From contig NZ_FNQE01000005.1 of NCBI RefSeq assembly GCF_900107485.1, forward strand, positions 1,863-65,862: a DNA stretch of 64,000 nucleotides, given 5' to 3'. This DNA is from Proteiniborus ethanoligenes. GTDB lineage: Bacteria; Bacillota; Clostridia; Tissierellales; Proteiniboraceae. A program made the position numbers and the translations under genes. The first letter of the stretch is position 1. Each line of letters opens with the position of its first letter. Under the pieces are notes generated by a model. The model saw only the letters and a list, made by a program, of their open reading frames with translations, ran no database searches and was not told the DNA's origin. Below, piece after piece: positions 16,256 through 52,791 of this stretch.

Positions 16256-18151
16256 TTATTTTTTATATGGAACTATTATACTTATAGCTTCTATAAATGT
16301 ATCATTATAGTTAGCTATTATGATTATTTCATCTCCTACATCTAAAGAGCTTTCACGTACTGTACTTCCATATAAGTTCATAAATGTAGTATCTGATGTG
16401 TAGAATATTGTTTTCTCTTCACTTGTATTATTGTAAACATCATAAAGCATTACTGTAATCATGCTATGTCTAGTAGTTATAGCCTTTATGTTGCCTATAT
16501 ATATATTGTTTCTTTGTCTAGTCAATGCATAAAGTGATGTTATTTCATCTCCTTCTGCAGTATATTCTATAAAGTAGCCTTCTCTTATATCGTATAGCTC
16601 TGCTCTTTCTTTATCTAGTCTTATAGTAGCACCTAATCCGATAAAGTAAGTTTCTTTTTCACCCTTATTATTTATAATTGTTATCTCTGGTTTTTTTGCA
16701 TGTAATATAGATACTACAGAGCCTTCTCCTTCTTTCTTAACTATCTTAGCCTCTATATCAGTAATTACTCCATATTCGATATCTATAGTTACATTATCAC
16801 CTTTTCTTAAATCTATAACTTTTGCTTTGCTTTTATTCCTATAAACTGAAACATATTTATCCATAGGATATTCAAATGTTTTTTCATCTTTGTCTTCAAT
16901 AACTAAATAATAATCACTTGAAGCTAACTTAATGTCCTTAATTGTTCCTGTAAGCTTTAAATATCTGCTTTCAGCCTTTATTCTAGTTATCTTACTATTG
17001 ATTACTTTAATCTCAGCATTATCTCCTTCTTTGATTTCTCTAAGAAAAGCTGATTTCCCATCTAAGGTTATATCCACATTAGAATCAATAGAGAAGGATT
17101 TTCTTGCAGTTGTTTTTGTGCTTTCATTAGTAGTATATTCTATAGTAAGCATTTGAGGACTTGTCTGAATAACCGACTTCACTATGCCTTTGTATTCCTC
17201 ATTTATACCTTCTGCATATAAGGATACAACCTTATAATCCTCTGTAACCTTAGCTTCAAATTTTAATCCCTCAATAAGCTCAGTATATAAGATTTTATTG
17301 TTATCTAGTTTAACATCTGAATTGCTATTTACTATATATGTGCTTCTTTGACCTATTCTGTCCTCTATAGTTATGTATACTTCACTATTAGTTCTTAATA
17401 TACTAGAAATAGTTCCTGTTATAGTTTGAGTTTTAACTGCAACTGTGTCACCAGGGAAAGGTCTATTTAATAAAAGATTCGCTACCATATAATCATAGCC
17501 TACGGATAGCATCTTTGCCATAACGTCTCTAGTCACAAGAGAACTAGGGTTGAATTTTCCTTGTTCGTCTCCATTAGGGTCAATTATACCCTTCTTTATC
17601 ATCATATCTACATATCTAGTGTCTTCTGAACCTATGCTTTCTGCATCCTTAAATGAAAGCCTTACAATAGTAGTTTTTTTAGCTTCTTCTTCTAATCCCA
17701 TAGCTTTAGTTAGATATCTAGTTATATCTACTTTTTGAGCAACTGCAGGTTGTCCATTTACATAAAAGCCTTTTACTTCATCTTGAGTTACTACCTTAGC
17801 AGCTAATGCTACTGCAACTCCATCTTGAGCCCATGTTGGAATATTATTTTGAGTTAAAAAAGCCTGATATTCTTGTTTGGCTTTTGCAGTTTTTGTTGCA
17901 TCCATGCCCATCATTCTAGCTAGCATAATAGCAGCTTCTAATTTTGTAACATTGGCTTTAGGTCTAAAATTACCTTCATTATCTCCTAATATTAATCCAG
18001 CCTTGCTAACTTTATCTATGTACTCCTTCGCCCAATGGGTACTAGATACATCCTTAAAGGTCGCTGCATATGCTACAGTACCAGAAAATACGAAAACCAA
18101 AGCTAATATAAGAGAAAATCTTTTTAAGTGTCTTTTACTCATAGAAAACAT
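16256..18151 (-). CDS. SLH-domain surface protein with beta-rich repeat region
   Basis: Secreted protein of 631 residues. A signal peptide (about residues 1-30, ending AYA) is followed by three SLH domains (about 31-80, 90-150 and 160-220). About six further repeats of roughly 65 residues resemble those of the downstream 528-residue paralogue. The ATG at 18151 follows a GGGGG-containing site 11 bases upstream; a second ATG three codons later is possible. The gene has its own terminator and a possible ECF-type promoter at 18293-18321. Confidence 0.85.
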   Translation of the reverse strand: MFSMSKRHLKRFSLILALVFVFSGTVAYAATFKDVSSTHWAKEYIDKVSKAGLILGDNEGNFRPKANVTKLEAAIMLARMMGMDATKTAKAKQEYQAFLTQNNIPTWAQDGVAVALAAKVVTQDEVKGFYVNGQPAVAQKVDITRYLTKAMGLEEEAKKTTIVRLSFKDAESIGSEDTRYVDMMIKKGIIDPNGDEQGKFNPSSLVTRDVMAKMLSVGYDYMVANLLLNRPFPGDTVAVKTQTITGTISSILRTNSEVYITIEDRIGQRSTYIVNSNSDVKLDNNKILYTELIEGLKFEAKVTEDYKVVSLYAEGINEEYKGIVKSVIQTSPQMLTIEYTTNESTKTTARKSFSIDSNVDITLDGKSAFLREIKEGDNAEIKVINSKITRIKAESRYLKLTGTIKDIKLASSDYYLVIEDKDEKTFEYPMDKYVSVYRNKSKAKVIDLRKGDNVTIDIEYGVITDIEAKIVKKEGEGSVVSILHAKKPEITIINNKGEKETYFIGLGATIRLDKERAELYDIREGYFIEYTAEGDEITSLYALTRQRNNIYIGNIKAITTRHSMITVMLYDVYNNTSEEKTIFYTSDTTFMNLYGSTVRESSLDVGDEIIIIANYNDTFIEAISIIVPYKK

Positions 18152-18380: not shown

Positions 18381-20975
18381 TTAAGGCAATAGGTCGTCAG
18401 TATAAAATCCATCTACTCCATTTGCTTCAAGCTCTTGTCTAAGGTCTTCCCTATTTATAGTATGAGCATATACAAATATGTTTGCATTTTTAAGCTTATT
18501 TGGAAGCTCTGTTCTAGCTTTACTTATTGGCATAGTAATGGCAAATATTTCATGTCTATTGACAAAATCTATTAGCTCTTCATCAGTGTAGTTAGATGCA
18601 TACAGAGTCAGAATAATGTTTGTATAGCCTAAGCCCTGTACTGGAATAAACTGATCTATTCCATATATTTGAGGAATGAATTGATGTATTAAATCAGGAT
18701 ATCTATCCCTTATAAGCTTAAGAGCTTCTACATTATCTCTTTTTATATCTGTAACAATATATACATCATCATGCTCATAAAGCCATTCTGCTAAATCTTC
18801 TAAAACCATCTGAGTAAGACCCTTAATCATTTTAAAGCCCTTAAATTCCTCCGTGCTGTACATTTTAGATTCTACAGAAAAAGCACTGTTAACATAGCTA
18901 TCCCAATCATGAATAAGGGCTAGATTGCCATCAGTAGTCCATTCAAAATCTAGTTCAATAAATCTATATCCATTTTCATAGCTTTTATCTATTGCTTCCT
19001 TAGAATTAGTATAGGACAATTCCTCTATTCTAGCACCTGCATGAGAGATTAGTGCTTCGGGCAATACTCTTGTGTCCACTTTTTCTTCCTCGTTAGAAAG
19101 CCCTTCTCTTTCTTCAATAAACTTTTTAAGTAAATCATTCTTTAATATATGATTAGAATTATTTATTTCTTTAATTGCTCTTTCATAGTCTTCTCTGCAT
19201 GCTTCAAGCTCAATAGGCTGTTTTGTGTTAGGATTCCAAGCTCTACTATTTTTAAATATTCCATCTCTAGACATTGAAAACACAACATCATCTTTAATAT
19301 AGGAGCCTTTTAGCATATATGTCTGCTGTGCAACAAATCCTTCTGTAGCATTGACTAGGTCCTGACCTAGCATTACTCCTTTTTTATTTTCAAGACCTAA
19401 TATATTCAATACTGTAGGTAAAAAATCCATTTGTCCTCCTGTAACAGATATTTTTTCATATACATTCGAACCTGGTACATGTATTATTAAGGGAATCTTC
19501 ATCATTTCATCAAAATCGTAATCATACCCTAGATATTCTGTCATTAGCCTTTTGTTATCCTCATCCATAGAAGAAATAGCAAAGTGATCTCCATAAATAT
19601 TTATCACTGTATCTTCATAAAGTCCTTCTCGCTTTAAGTCTTCTATGAACTCACCTATAGCAGCATCTGCATAATTTATAGATTGAATATAGTTGCCTAA
19701 TAGAGTATTTTCATGGTTATCCATAAGCTGAATCTCCTTGTATTCATCAGGCATAGTAAAAGGGTGATGACTAGATAGGGTAACTAAAAATGCATAATAA
19801 GGCTCTTGTGTAGCCTTCATATAACTAATAGATTGTTTGAAAAATTCCCTATCATTTATCCCAAAGCCAATAACAGGCTCAGTTATACTATAATCATTCT
19901 GGCTATAAAACCTATCAAAGCCTTGATATGGATAAGCCTTATCTCGATTCCAAAAATCTGGCTTATATCCATGATAGGCAGCTGTAGTATAACCCCTATC
20001 CTTTAATATCCATGGAAGTCCATAATATGTGTTATTATAATACATTAAATAGGTCTGTCCATCCATAGCAGGATATAGAGAATTATGCGATACAAATTCT
20101 GAGTCTGATGTGTTCCCCCTACCTAATTGCTGATAATATCTATCAAAATATATGCTATCTTCATTTATAAGCTTATTTAAGTTTGGAGTAATTTCTTTAC
20201 CATTATATTTTCTATTTATTACAAAGTTCTGAAGTCCTTCTACTTGAATAGTTATTACGTTTCTGTCCTTTCCTATCCCATAGTATTTTTTATCTTTATT
20301 GACTGTACTGCTACTAGCATTTTTCATAAAATCATCTATATTATCAACATAGCTTTCTCTAAAAAAAGTATTGTATATATCACTAATATGATAGGTGAAA
20401 AATTCCTGCCTTGATAAATTAATATCCTCATCAAGGCCATTTACAATAAGAACCGATGAAATAACCAGAACAAATGCTCCTGACACAATGGTAAATACTT
20501 TCCTTTTTTCAAGATTATATAGATTTTTAAATGGTGTAAGCTTGCGTGTATATAGATAGTAAAGTATTAAAGGCAAAATATCCATTACTAACAAGAAGTT
20601 TACAGGCTTTAAAACATAGTTTATACTTTCACCTATGGTTCCAAGTTGATTTACCTGCTTTAATACAACTACAGATGTAAGCTGATTAAAGTATGTAAAA
20701 TATCCTGCATCTGCAAACATTATAAAGGATATTATTGAATAAATAATCAATAACGCAATGTCTCGCTTTTTATCCTTCAATATATACGATAAGGCAATAA
20801 TAAAGATTATATAAATTAAGCTTACAAAGCTAAGCTTTAAACTTACGCTTCCATTTTGGATTAGATGATTATAGATAATTGCTTTAATAAAAAAAAGAAA
20901 TGATAATACTGTAGTTTCGATTAATTGGATTTTGTATTTTTTTATTATGCTCATGACTTGCTTAATCCTCTCCAT
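18381..20975 (-). CDS. LtaS-like polyglycerolphosphate synthase fused to a GDPD-like domain
   Basis: Membrane protein of 864 residues with two enzymatic parts. Residues 1-180 carry five membrane segments. Residues about 235-600 are an LtaS/sulfatase-fold domain: the likely metal-binding Glu lies in IQVEGLQ (246), the catalytic nucleophile is Thr289 in GRGNTSDSEF, and YGDH is at 461-464. Residues about 637-864 form a glycerophosphodiester phosphodiesterase-like domain with His645 in SHAG, Glu674/Asp676 in IELDFEWTTDG and His689 in LIHDWD. LtaS normally ends after the sulfatase domain, so the fusion is unusual. It may make and trim, or recycle, a glycerolphosphate polymer. An ATG at 20954 with GGAGAGG upstream is an alternative start. 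Confidence 0.85.
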   Translation of the reverse strand: MERIKQVMSIIKKYKIQLIETTVLSFLFFIKAIIYNHLIQNGSVSLKLSFVSLIYIIFIIALSYILKDKKRDIALLIIYSIISFIMFADAGYFTYFNQLTSVVVLKQVNQLGTIGESINYVLKPVNFLLVMDILPLILYYLYTRKLTPFKNLYNLEKRKVFTIVSGAFVLVISSVLIVNGLDEDINLSRQEFFTYHISDIYNTFFRESYVDNIDDFMKNASSSTVNKDKKYYGIGKDRNVITIQVEGLQNFVINRKYNGKEITPNLNKLINEDSIYFDRYYQQLGRGNTSDSEFVSHNSLYPAMDGQTYLMYYNNTYYGLPWILKDRGYTTAAYHGYKPDFWNRDKAYPYQGFDRFYSQNDYSITEPVIGFGINDREFFKQSISYMKATQEPYYAFLVTLSSHHPFTMPDEYKEIQLMDNHENTLLGNYIQSINYADAAIGEFIEDLKREGLYEDTVINIYGDHFAISSMDEDNKRLMTEYLGYDYDFDEMMKIPLIIHVPGSNVYEKISVTGGQMDFLPTVLNILGLENKKGVMLGQDLVNATEGFVAQQTYMLKGSYIKDDVVFSMSRDGIFKNSRAWNPNTKQPIELEACREDYERAIKEINNSNHILKNDLLKKFIEEREGLSNEEEKVDTRVLPEALISHAGARIEELSYTNSKEAIDKSYENGYRFIELDFEWTTDGNLALIHDWDSYVNSAFSVESKMYSTEEFKGFKMIKGLTQMVLEDLAEWLYEHDDVYIVTDIKRDNVEALKLIRDRYPDLIHQFIPQIYGIDQFIPVQGLGYTNIILTLYASNYTDEELIDFVNRHEIFAITMPISKARTELPNKLKNANIFVYAHTINREDLRQELEANGVDGFYTDDLLP

Positions 20976-50244: not shown

Positions 50245-51375
50245 CTATCTATTTAGAAGATTGAAGGTTTTAAACTGAGAAAAATTTTGAATATTAAAAG
50301 CAAATAATATATCATCAACATTTATATTTTTAATATATTCTGGTATGCTTTCCCTAAAATATCTTGTATCTATCAAAACAATTTTTTCATAATGTAAGGA
50401 TAAAAAAGGCAAAAGACTATTGGCATATGAATCCTTAATTATCACTATGGATTTTCCATTTTTTATAGATGTCTCTATATTTACTACTCCGTAATCTCCA
50501 CCTAAGAAATATGAGTATTTATCAGTCTTATTAAGATAGCTCTCATCATATAAGCTTTCTGTTTCCATGCTTTCATTTATAGTAATTTTATATTGTACAT
50601 CCTCAGGAAATGTGTATTTATAAATGGAATCTGGTTTCCCTGTATATAGGTTTGCTTTTCTATAAATAGTACCTAGAAAATCTTCAGAAACCTTTTCAAT
50701 TTTAAATTTGTTTTCAGAATAGGGTTTATATCCTAAGGCATTAGACAAAGCTTTGTAGCCATAGTAAGCACCCTTTGTAGTCCAATGATGATCTGTCCTA
50801 TAGTAAATGTATTCATTAGATTTTTCCTTAAGGACCTTTATTAAATCTACTACATAAAAATCCTCGGGAAGAGACTTTATAATATCTTCCATTATTTTAT
50901 ACTCATCAATTATGGGTGCATATTCTGGCAATGATTCTGAATATACTATTCCTTTAGAAGGAATTAAAACTGCTCCAACTTTTATATCCTTATTTAGTTG
51001 ATGGATTTTGCTAATAAAATTGTTAATATAGCTCATGTTTTTGGCAAATTGGTCTTGGTCAAAATCAGAATCAACATCAAATAAAAGCTCTTCTTTCCCA
51101 AAATACACTCTGCCATTGTCTTTTTTTAGCATTATTAAATCAGTTCCTGTCTTTACTTTTATCCAAAAATCTCTATATGGAAATTGGTCTGTTGTGTATT
51201 TTTCAAAATCACTAGAATATTTGCCAGACAATATGTTTTTGACATTAAAATCTGGTATTTTTTGAAGATACCTATTTTCTTGACTTGAAAAGGATTGAAT
51301 AGGCATCAAGATGTTTATAGTTGAAAAAGTAATTACAATTAAACTAACTATTATGATTCTAATCTTATTTTTCAT
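50245..51375 (-). CDS. DHHW-family (AlgX/AlgJ-like) acyl-transfer partner protein
   Basis: Protein of 376 residues with one N-terminal membrane segment (about 5-22) and an extracellular SGNH-like domain. YRTDHHWTTKGAYYGYKAL carries the DHHW signature (about residues 195-200), and IVIKDSYANSLLPFLS holds the putative nucleophile region (D-S) of AlgJ-type proteins. It starts nine bases after the MBOAT gene. In this pairing the MBOAT protein brings the acyl group across the membrane and the DHHW protein puts it on a polymer outside. The target, perhaps a secondary wall polymer, is not known. Confidence 0.85.
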   Translation of the reverse strand: MKNKIRIIIVSLIVITFSTINILMPIQSFSSQENRYLQKIPDFNVKNILSGKYSSDFEKYTTDQFPYRDFWIKVKTGTDLIMLKKDNGRVYFGKEELLFDVDSDFDQDQFAKNMSYINNFISKIHQLNKDIKVGAVLIPSKGIVYSESLPEYAPIIDEYKIMEDIIKSLPEDFYVVDLIKVLKEKSNEYIYYRTDHHWTTKGAYYGYKALSNALGYKPYSENKFKIEKVSEDFLGTIYRKANLYTGKPDSIYKYTFPEDVQYKITINESMETESLYDESYLNKTDKYSYFLGGDYGVVNIETSIKNGKSIVIIKDSYANSLLPFLSLHYEKIVLIDTRYFRESIPEYIKNINVDDILFAFNIQNFSQFKTFNLLNR

Positions 51376-51384
51376 GTCCCGCTC

Positions 51385-52791
51385 CTAAAATCTAAAGTAT
51401 AAGAAAGGGTTATAGCTTTGGTCAACAAGGTATGCTGTTGATAAAAGCAAAACCACTACAATATAAATATTTTCTATTATCCATAAGCTTTTAAATTGTT
51501 TTCTATACTTTTCCCATAATTTCTTTGGATAATTAGTTGAGCCAATAATGGCTATTAAAAGGAGAATAATATTAGTATATAAGATGTAAATTGTAGTATC
51601 ATTAATAATCATATTATCAGTGTTAAACATGGCCTTGATATATGATAGTCCTGTAATTATATTGTCCTGTGCAAAAATTGTCCATGATATTAGTATTAAT
51701 ACAATAGTATAGAGTCTTTTAAATATAGTAGGAATTCTTTCTATAATTTTTAATAAAAAGGCTTTTTCTAAGATTAGTATTATTCCAAAATACAAGCCCC
51801 AAACAACAAAGTTCCAGCTTGCTCCATGCCAAATACCTGTTAGTAGCCACACAACCGTTATATTTCTAAGCTGTTTTAATAAGCCCTTCTTGTTGCCTCC
51901 TAAAGGAATATATACATATTCCTTAAACCAAGTTCCTAATGAAATATGCCACCTTCTCCAAAACTCTGTAATTGAATTAGACATATATGGATAATCAAAA
52001 TTTTCTAGAAAATTAAATCCAAACATTTTTCCTAATCCTATTGCCATATCAGAATAAGCTGAAAAATCAAAATAAATTTGAAAAGCATAGGCTATAATCC
52101 CTAGCCAAGCCGCCATAATAGGTAAGGAGCTTATTTCCATCTTAGATATGCTTTCCCATATCAACCCCACATTATTTGCTATGAGGACCTTTTTACCTAG
52201 TCCAATTATAAACCTTGTGATTCCGTAACTGAACTTTTCCGAGTTAATGGTTCTATCTTTTAGTTCCTTTGCAATAGTCATGTATCTTACTATAGGTCCT
52301 GCTATTAGTTGTGGGAAAAGTGTTACATAGCTGCCAAAAGAAATAATATCCTCTTGAATCTCTGCTTCACCTCTGTAAACATCTATTGAGTAGGACATTG
52401 TTTGAAAGGTATAAAAAGATATTCCTATTGGCAAAGGCAAATATAATAGTGGAATACTACTGCCAAAAACACTATTTATGTTTGAAATTATAAAATCTGC
52501 ATATTTGAAAAATGATAACAAGCCAATATTTATAAATATTGAAGCAAATAGCCATAGCTTTGCTCTATTTTTATTATGGTTTAGTATATTTGTGTGGATG
52601 TTTTTACCGCATGTATAATCAACTATTGTTGAAAACAGCATAAGCCAAATATATTTAGGTTCTCCCCATCCATAGAAAAACAAACTAAATAAAAATAATA
52701 TAAGGTTTCTATACCTTTTTCCTGATATGAAATAAGTTATTAAAACTAATGGTAAAAAATAGAATAAGAATAATATGCTGCTAAATACCAC
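51385..52791 (-). CDS. MBOAT-family membrane O-acyltransferase (AlgI/DltB type)
   Basis: Integral membrane protein of 468 residues with about 10-12 hydrophobic segments. WRRWHISLGTWFKEYVYIPL is the conserved cytoplasmic loop, and the catalytic His is in LTGIWHGASWNF. It moves acyl groups, usually acetate, for esterification of extracellular polysaccharide. GTG start after GGAGGAG. No DltA, DltC or DltD is nearby, and the adjacent DHHW gene makes an AlgI-like role more likely than D-alanylation. Confidence 0.92.
   Translation of the reverse strand: MVFSSILFLFYFLPLVLITYFISGKRYRNLILFLFSLFFYGWGEPKYIWLMLFSTIVDYTCGKNIHTNILNHNKNRAKLWLFASIFINIGLLSFFKYADFIISNINSVFGSSIPLLYLPLPIGISFYTFQTMSYSIDVYRGEAEIQEDIISFGSYVTLFPQLIAGPIVRYMTIAKELKDRTINSEKFSYGITRFIIGLGKKVLIANNVGLIWESISKMEISSLPIMAAWLGIIAYAFQIYFDFSAYSDMAIGLGKMFGFNFLENFDYPYMSNSITEFWRRWHISLGTWFKEYVYIPLGGNKKGLLKQLRNITVVWLLTGIWHGASWNFVVWGLYFGIILILEKAFLLKIIERIPTIFKRLYTIVLILISWTIFAQDNIITGLSYIKAMFNTDNMIINDTTIYILYTNIILLLIAIIGSTNYPKKLWEKYRKQFKSLWIIENIYIVVVLLLSTAYLVDQSYNPFLYFRF

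What the first reader, a model, noticed from the sequence alone, without database searches (positions are those of the whole stretch)
18381..20975. LtaS-like synthase fused to a glycerophosphodiesterase-like domain
The protein joins an enzyme that builds polyglycerolphosphate to one whose family cleaves glycerolphosphodiesters. Key residues of both appear intact (Thr289, YGDH; His645, Glu674/Asp676, His689). Such a protein could control chain length or recycle glycerolphosphate outside the membrane.
Basis: partly seen in the sequence, partly recalled or inferred. Interest (0 to 1): 0.65.

Follow-up and report, generated by a model that had tools for sequence, protein, structure and literature searches.

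The report
Teichoic-acid synthase fused to glycerophosphodiesterase
One bacterial membrane protein joins the enzyme that builds poly-glycerolphosphate surface chains to an unusual enzyme domain of a family that cuts such links, and relatives that have lost the active site of one half or the other suggest the cell edits this polymer as it makes it.

Summary
It has about five predicted membrane helices, an LtaS-type extracellular domain with all catalytic residues, a flexible linker and a complete GDPD barrel (residues ~640-864; AlphaFold pLDDT 96.9). The domain is not an ordinary GlpQ-type GDPD. It belongs to a distinct subfamily ("HAGG"): Ala/Gly replaces the Arg after the catalytic His, Asp replaces the usual Glu metal ligand, and there is an extra His838. 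The fusion occurs across one clostridial order (Tissierellales-like) but in no other sampled Bacillota genome; separate HAGG genes lie beside LtaS-like genes in five phyla (30 of 80 HAGG loci fused or linked, against 1 of 80 ordinary GDPD loci). Within the order the two activities decay reciprocally. About 30 fusions keep a perfect LtaS and a catalytically dead GDPD under purifying selection (dN/dS 0.10-0.29); eight secreted proteins keep an intact GDPD and a dead LtaS. Most likely the GDPD trims or transfers glycerol-1-phosphate units of the polymer its LtaS half makes. Activity, substrate and direction are inferred. I found no paper describing this fusion. New variant of a known kind.

The parts
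18381..20975 (-). Whole gene: LtaS-like / HAGG-GDPD fusion, 864 aa plus stop (857 aa if translation starts at Met8, codon 20952-20954)
   Evidence: ORF; Pfam; sequence
20310..20975 (-). Residues 1-222: about five membrane helices (model helices 2-38, 42-63, 68-96, 133-144, 157-181) and the link to the outside domain
19395..20264 (-). Residues 238-527: LtaS-type alkaline-phosphatase-fold domain
20109..20111 (-). Thr289, predicted nucleophile of the LtaS half; Glu246, His335, Trp342, Arg344, His403, Asp463 and His464 also kept
19059..19139 (-). Residues 613-639: linker between the domains (624-636 has pLDDT under 50)
18384..19058 (-). Residues 640-864: HAGG-type GDPD TIM barrel
19041..19043 (-). 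His645, first catalytic His; followed by Ala646 where ordinary GDPDs have Arg
18948..18956 (-). Glu674-Leu-Asp676, metal ligands
18909..18911 (-). His689, second catalytic His
18741..18749 (-). Asp743-x-Lys745: Asp in place of the usual Glu ligand; Lys kept
18462..18464 (-). His838, subfamily-specific (usually Trp in ordinary GDPDs)

Best explanation
The gene encodes a two-headed extracellular enzyme. The LtaS half moves glycerol-1-phosphate from phosphatidylglycerol onto a growing poly-glycerolphosphate chain. The tethered HAGG-GDPD half cleaves or moves terminal glycerol-1-phosphate units of the same polymer, using the free 2-OH and a cyclic-phosphate-type step as other GDPDs do, and so sets or edits chain length at the site of synthesis. 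Shown here: the domains, intact residues, predicted topology, a distinct active-site signature, the cross-phylum link to LtaS-like genes, and reciprocal loss of one active site or the other. Inferred: activity, substrate (Gro1P polymer), exo-trimming rather than transfer, and the effect on length.
For: Both active sites are complete. The barrel is predicted with high confidence and matches solved GDPDs. HAGG-GDPD genes are fused or adjacent to LtaS-like genes in 30/80 loci, against 1/80 for ordinary GDPDs; 19/69 when fusions are left out. Of the adjacent pairs 17/20 are on the same strand, mostly abutting, in five phyla. Two further fusions to distant LtaS-like proteins lie in other phyla (Falkowbacteria L108, Spirochaetaceae L159). 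LtaS enzymes use phosphatidylglycerol, giving Gro1P; GlpQ, with His-Arg and Glu in its site, cannot cut Gro1P polymer (PMC7086022), and the HAGG subfamily differs at exactly these Arg and Glu positions. A GDPD tethered to the membrane of S. aureus acts on lyso-phosphatidylglycerol through a cyclic intermediate (PMC10404611). The genome has no DltD match, so 2-OH groups may be free of D-alanine.
Against: No activity has been measured for any member. About 30 fusions carry a dead GDPD, so hydrolysis cannot be what keeps the domain in those species. The weak NCBIfam match to AvrBs2 points to a related clade that makes sugar phosphodiesters instead of cleaving (PMC12807533). The protein is below NCBIfam's LtaS equivalog cut-off (352 against 970 bits), so the polymer itself is not proven to be LTA. 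The genome also holds one TagF-like gene, so wall teichoic acid may be a second substrate.
Confidence: 0.5

Rival explanations
1. The GDPD half is a phosphodiester-forming transferase: it caps or branches the chain, or moves glycerolphosphate to a sugar acceptor, instead of hydrolysing it.
For: Altered catalytic neighbourhood (no Arg, Asp for Glu, extra His838); weak family match to AvrBs2, a GDPD-derived synthetase (PMC12807533).
Against: The match is weak (E 3.5e-5, one short stretch); the synthetase-specific motif was not looked for because that effector was not fetched.
Confidence: 0.2
2. The domain is mainly a polymer-binding or scaffolding module, with catalysis secondary or absent; it holds the growing chain near LtaS.
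For: Most fusions in the order have lost H/E/D/H yet keep the domain under purifying selection (dN/dS 0.10-0.29, like the TM region); the N-terminal catalytic part is eroded while profile positions 85-220 are kept.
Against: In the window protein, its congeners and several other lineages every catalytic residue is retained, and 79 subfamily members keep H, E, D, H, D, K without exception, which binding alone would not require.
Confidence: 0.17
3. The GDPD half acts on lipid: it removes the head group of lyso-phosphatidylglycerol or GroP-glycolipid side products at the membrane, protecting or regenerating the LtaS substrate pool.
For: S. aureus LpgD, a membrane-tethered GDPD, does this (PMC10404611); the domain is tethered close to the membrane.
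Against: Many HAGG relatives look secreted or S-layer anchored and are not held at the membrane (SLH-linked L023, L151).
Confidence: 0.1
4. Chance fusion of two unrelated activities with no joint function.
For: Neither activity has been measured.
Against: Conserved across genera and under purifying selection; other fusions and adjacency in other phyla.
Confidence: 0.03

Closest known systems
LtaS / LtaP lipoteichoic acid synthases (Listeria 4uop/4uoo, B. subtilis 2w8d, S. aureus 2w5q)
   Same: N-terminal membrane helices plus alkaline-phosphatase-fold extracellular domain; catalytic set Glu, Thr, His, Trp, Arg, His, Asp, His the same as in plain LtaS relatives
   Different: Carries a ~250-residue C-terminal extension with a second enzyme domain; below NCBIfam's LtaS equivalog cut-off
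GlpQ-type glycerophosphodiester phosphodiesterases (PF03009; B. subtilis GlpQ 5t91)
   Same: TIM barrel; H, E-x-D, H and x-K catalytic framework
   Different: Arg after the first His is Ala/Gly, Glu ligand is Asp, Trp is His838; extra invariant Gln769 and Tyr792. GlpQ is strictly Gro3P-specific (PMC7086022)
Phage K / phi812 GP-PDE domain of the central spike (9f5m, 9eul)
   Same: Best structural match of the barrel, TM about 0.8
   Different: Phage spike protein; 21% identity
AvrBs2 / agrocinopine synthase clade (GDPD-derived synthetases)
   Same: Weak profile match; GDPD-like catalytic residues (PMC12807533)
   Different: Sugar-phosphodiester synthetases working in other compartments; direct comparison not made
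YejM/PbgA (enterobacterial LtaS-fold proteins)
   Same: LtaS fold found by Foldseek; known as an LtaS-like protein that works without synthase activity (own knowledge), a precedent for the pseudo-LtaS halves seen here
   Different: No GDPD domain

Membership tests
LtaS / LTA synthase family | Sulfatase-type (PF00884) extracellular domain matching LtaS structures | tested here: met
LtaS / LTA synthase family | Catalytic set Glu, Thr, His, Trp, Arg, His, Asp, His | tested here: met
   ETHWRHDH in the window protein
LtaS / LTA synthase family | About five N-terminal membrane helices | tested here: met
   hydropathy count 5; model helices
LtaS / LTA synthase family | NCBIfam equivalog cut-off for Gram-positive LtaS (970 bits) | tested here: not met
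   352 bits; so an LtaS-like family member, not filed as the equivalog
LtaS / LTA synthase family | Makes polyglycerolphosphate from phosphatidylglycerol | not testable with these tools
   no biochemistry
GDPD superfamily (PF03009) | Match over Pfam gathering score | tested here: met
   44.7 against 23.6 bits
GDPD superfamily (PF03009) | TIM-barrel fold | tested here: met
   pLDDT 96.9; Foldseek TM 0.66-0.82 to solved GDPDs
GDPD superfamily (PF03009) | Catalytic H, E-x-D, H, Lys | tested here: met
GlpQ-type GDPD | His-Arg pair and Glu third ligand | tested here: not met
   Ala646, Asp743; 79/79 HAGG members lack Arg and have Asp
AvrBs2 / agrocinopine synthase clade | Clade-specific motif with Arg544/Asp547 in the active centre | not tested
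   effector sequence not fetched; motif known from PMC12807533

The most novel reading that the evidence does not exclude
HAGG-GDPDs are the dedicated partner enzymes of phosphatidylglycerol-dependent glycerolphosphate transferases across bacterial phyla: the missing glycerol-1-phosphate-specific counterpart of GlpQ, able to trim lipoteichoic acid. In many species the fused copy has turned into a non-catalytic module that binds the polymer or regulates its synthesis.
Probability: 0.35. Interest if true: 0.78.

Novelty: new variant of a known kind. Interest (0 to 1): 0.58.

Why it matters
How lipoteichoic acid length is set and how it is turned over is poorly understood, and the known teichoic-acid GDPD (GlpQ) cannot cut it because LTA is the opposite enantiomer. 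A polymerase that carries its own GDPD, with natural single-dead variants in both directions, gives a ready-made set of proteins to test editing against scaffolding. The HAGG signature also lets one find candidate partner enzymes of LtaS/MdoB-like transferases in other phyla.

Tried and rejected
Translation of the + strand: stops throughout. Gene conversion between the window's GDPD and the S-layer-anchored GDPD of its congeners: informative sites split 8:8, no sign of it. Fusion as assembly chimera: rejected, conserved in many genomes. Degenerate GDPDs as decaying debris: rejected by dN/dS. Paper searches for a described LtaS-GDPD fusion: none found; only open-licence papers were searchable. 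PHROGs: only a weak tail-fibre match. Profile alignment with the genome's own ordinary GDPD slipped by two residues at the Asp/Lys motif, so the many-sequence alignment was used instead.

Full report
WHAT IS THERE. The ORF at 18381-20975 is on the minus strand and encodes 864 aa. Pfam finds Sulfatase PF00884 at 238-527 and GDPD PF03009 (best stretch 657-727), both over their curated cut-offs. By sequence the nearest solved structures are LtaS of B. subtilis, Listeria and S. aureus; residues 660-860 match a GP-PDE domain. AlphaFold on the GDPD domain with 79 sequences gives pLDDT 96.9, pTM 0.93, and Foldseek puts it among GDPDs, best to the phage K gp155 domain, T. tengcongensis GDPD and B. subtilis GlpQ. 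The full-length model (pLDDT 84.3) shows N-terminal membrane helices, the LtaS domain, a linker with low confidence at 624-636, and the barrel; its best structural matches are LtaP and LtaS. I could not measure the distance between the two active sites, since coordinates are not given.

BOTH ACTIVE SITES. The LtaS half has Glu246, Thr289, His335, Trp342, Arg344, His403, Asp463 and His464, the same set as plain LtaS relatives. The GDPD half has His645, Glu674, Asp676, His689, Asp743 and Lys745, invariant in 79 sequences.

A DISTINCT GDPD SUBFAMILY. I aligned the 79 subfamily sequences with 72 ordinary GDPDs of the same class. Catalytic H, E, D, H and K are shared, but ordinary GDPDs have Arg after the first His (70/72; my picking pattern demanded Arg or Lys, so this count is not independent), while the subfamily has Ala, Gly or Ser (79/79). 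The Glu ligand (60/72) is Asp (79/79), and Trp (46/72) is His838 (77/79). Gln769 and Tyr792 are invariant only in the subfamily. In GlpQ the Arg and Glu line the site that makes it strictly specific for glycerol-3-phosphate; GlpQ degrades wall teichoic acid but not intact LTA, which is poly-glycerol-1-phosphate (PMC7086022). The subfamily thus differs where enantiomer choice might be made. That the change suits Gro1P is my inference.

HOW COMMON. Two congeners have the fusion at 69-71% identity. In 233 genomes of the order a profile of the domain finds many fusions; in 293 genomes of the class and 398 of the phylum no fusion lies outside the order. Named members include Clostridiaceae bacterium M8S5, Firmicutes bacterium FC7, Peptoniphilus nemausensis and Aedoeadaptatus coxii, so the order corresponds to Tissierellales with Peptoniphilaceae. 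Beyond it there are two fusions to distant LtaS-like proteins, in a Falkowbacteria and a Spirochaetaceae MAG.

LINK TO LtaS ELSEWHERE. Among 80 loci found in GTDB genomes with the domain profile, 11 are fused to and 19 lie next to an LtaS-like gene. As control I took 80 ordinary GDPD loci with the same flanks: 1 has an LtaS-like gene (Fisher P 1e-9; 19/69 if fusions are left out). The adjacent pairs are mostly co-directional and abutting and come from Planctomycetota, Pseudomonadota, Thermodesulfobacteriota, Bacillota and a CPR phylum. Limits: the control comes from Clostridia only, and some HAGG loci are close relatives of each other, so the P value overstates independence; the spread over phyla does not.

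RECIPROCAL DECAY. I classified 52 proteins with a long C-terminal part: 20 have all six GDPD catalytic residues and 32 do not; in two of the 32 (L031, L032) no GDPD profile match remains, so 30 are secure pseudo-GDPDs. Every one of those 30 keeps a complete LtaS catalytic set, with Tyr for Trp in two. Some are point losses in an otherwise whole barrel (L009: H to L, D to N, H to Q, D to T); others have lost the region around the second His. Conversely eight secreted proteins without the membrane part (Ezakiella, Peptoniphilus duerdenii, Tissierellia MAGs: L074, L079, L080, L093, L098, L106, L109, L129) have an intact GDPD and a ruined LtaS site. No protein with both halves dead was seen, but my searches would find such proteins less easily. 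On a tree of the LtaS domain, intact and dead states change at least six times among fused proteins, so loss happened more than once (quick tree, root not inferred, one 'none' row, L015_p3893, is an ORF cut by the end of its locus). The dead domains evolve under purifying selection: dN/dS 0.10-0.29, against 0.04-0.09 for LtaS and 0.08-0.26 for the membrane part of the same pairs (dS is high in some pairs, the closest pair gives 0.18).

CONTEXT IN THIS GENOME. The downstream gene (16256-18151) is an SLH-type protein also next to the fusion in both congeners. The congeners have in addition an S-layer-anchored HAGG-GDPD two genes away, absent here. The genome has one other GDPD (ordinary), one further distant LtaS-like protein, one TagF-like gene and no DltD match.

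MECHANISM. Most likely the LtaS half extends a glycerol-1-phosphate chain from phosphatidylglycerol and the GDPD half, tethered on the same side, removes or transfers end units. Catalysis in GlpQ is proposed to need a free 2-OH (PMC7086022), and S. aureus LpgD passes through a cyclic phosphate (PMC10404611). Lack of a DltD match fits a polymer with free 2-OH. The rivals are a transferase role like the AvrBs2 clade (PMC12807533), a polymer-holding role (which best explains the dead-GDPD fusions), and a lipid clean-up role. These are not exclusive: an editing domain that also binds chain could lose catalysis and keep binding.

VERDICT. A real, conserved and apparently undescribed architecture built from known enzyme families, with an unusual evolutionary pattern. 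The function is inferred, the tests are simple.

Noticed in passing
L023:4518-6002 and L024:10433-11854 (congeners): Secreted protein with HAGG-GDPD and two SLH repeats close to the fusion; about 76% identical to the window's GDPD domain and probably derived from the fused domain by duplication; absent from the window's genome.
   Followed up: partly
16256-18151, minus strand: SLH-type 631-aa protein that neighbours the fusion in all three species of the genus, though gene order differs.
   Followed up: no
20952-20954: Met8 has a GGAGAGG motif 12 nt upstream and Met1 has none; the true start may be Met8.
   Followed up: no
L031 (orf from 3761) and L032 (orf from 1435): LtaS proteins of 906-921 aa with ~370-residue C-terminal parts that may be very remote barrel domains, not recognised by the GDPD profile.
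   Followed up: no
L112:3041-4837 and L136:2984-4717: Secreted proteins that seem to hold two GDPD-like units, the first degenerate and the second intact (Criibacterium bergeronii, Eubacterium yurii); judged by eye.
   Followed up: no
50245-52791, minus strand: MBOAT-type acyltransferase next to a DHHW/AlgX-like protein (named from appearance, not searched); could O-acylate a surface polymer.
   Followed up: no
28723-49355: Dense run of proteins with S-layer-homology-like repeats and a 2126-aa IPT/TIG-repeat-like secreted protein (judged by eye).
   Followed up: no
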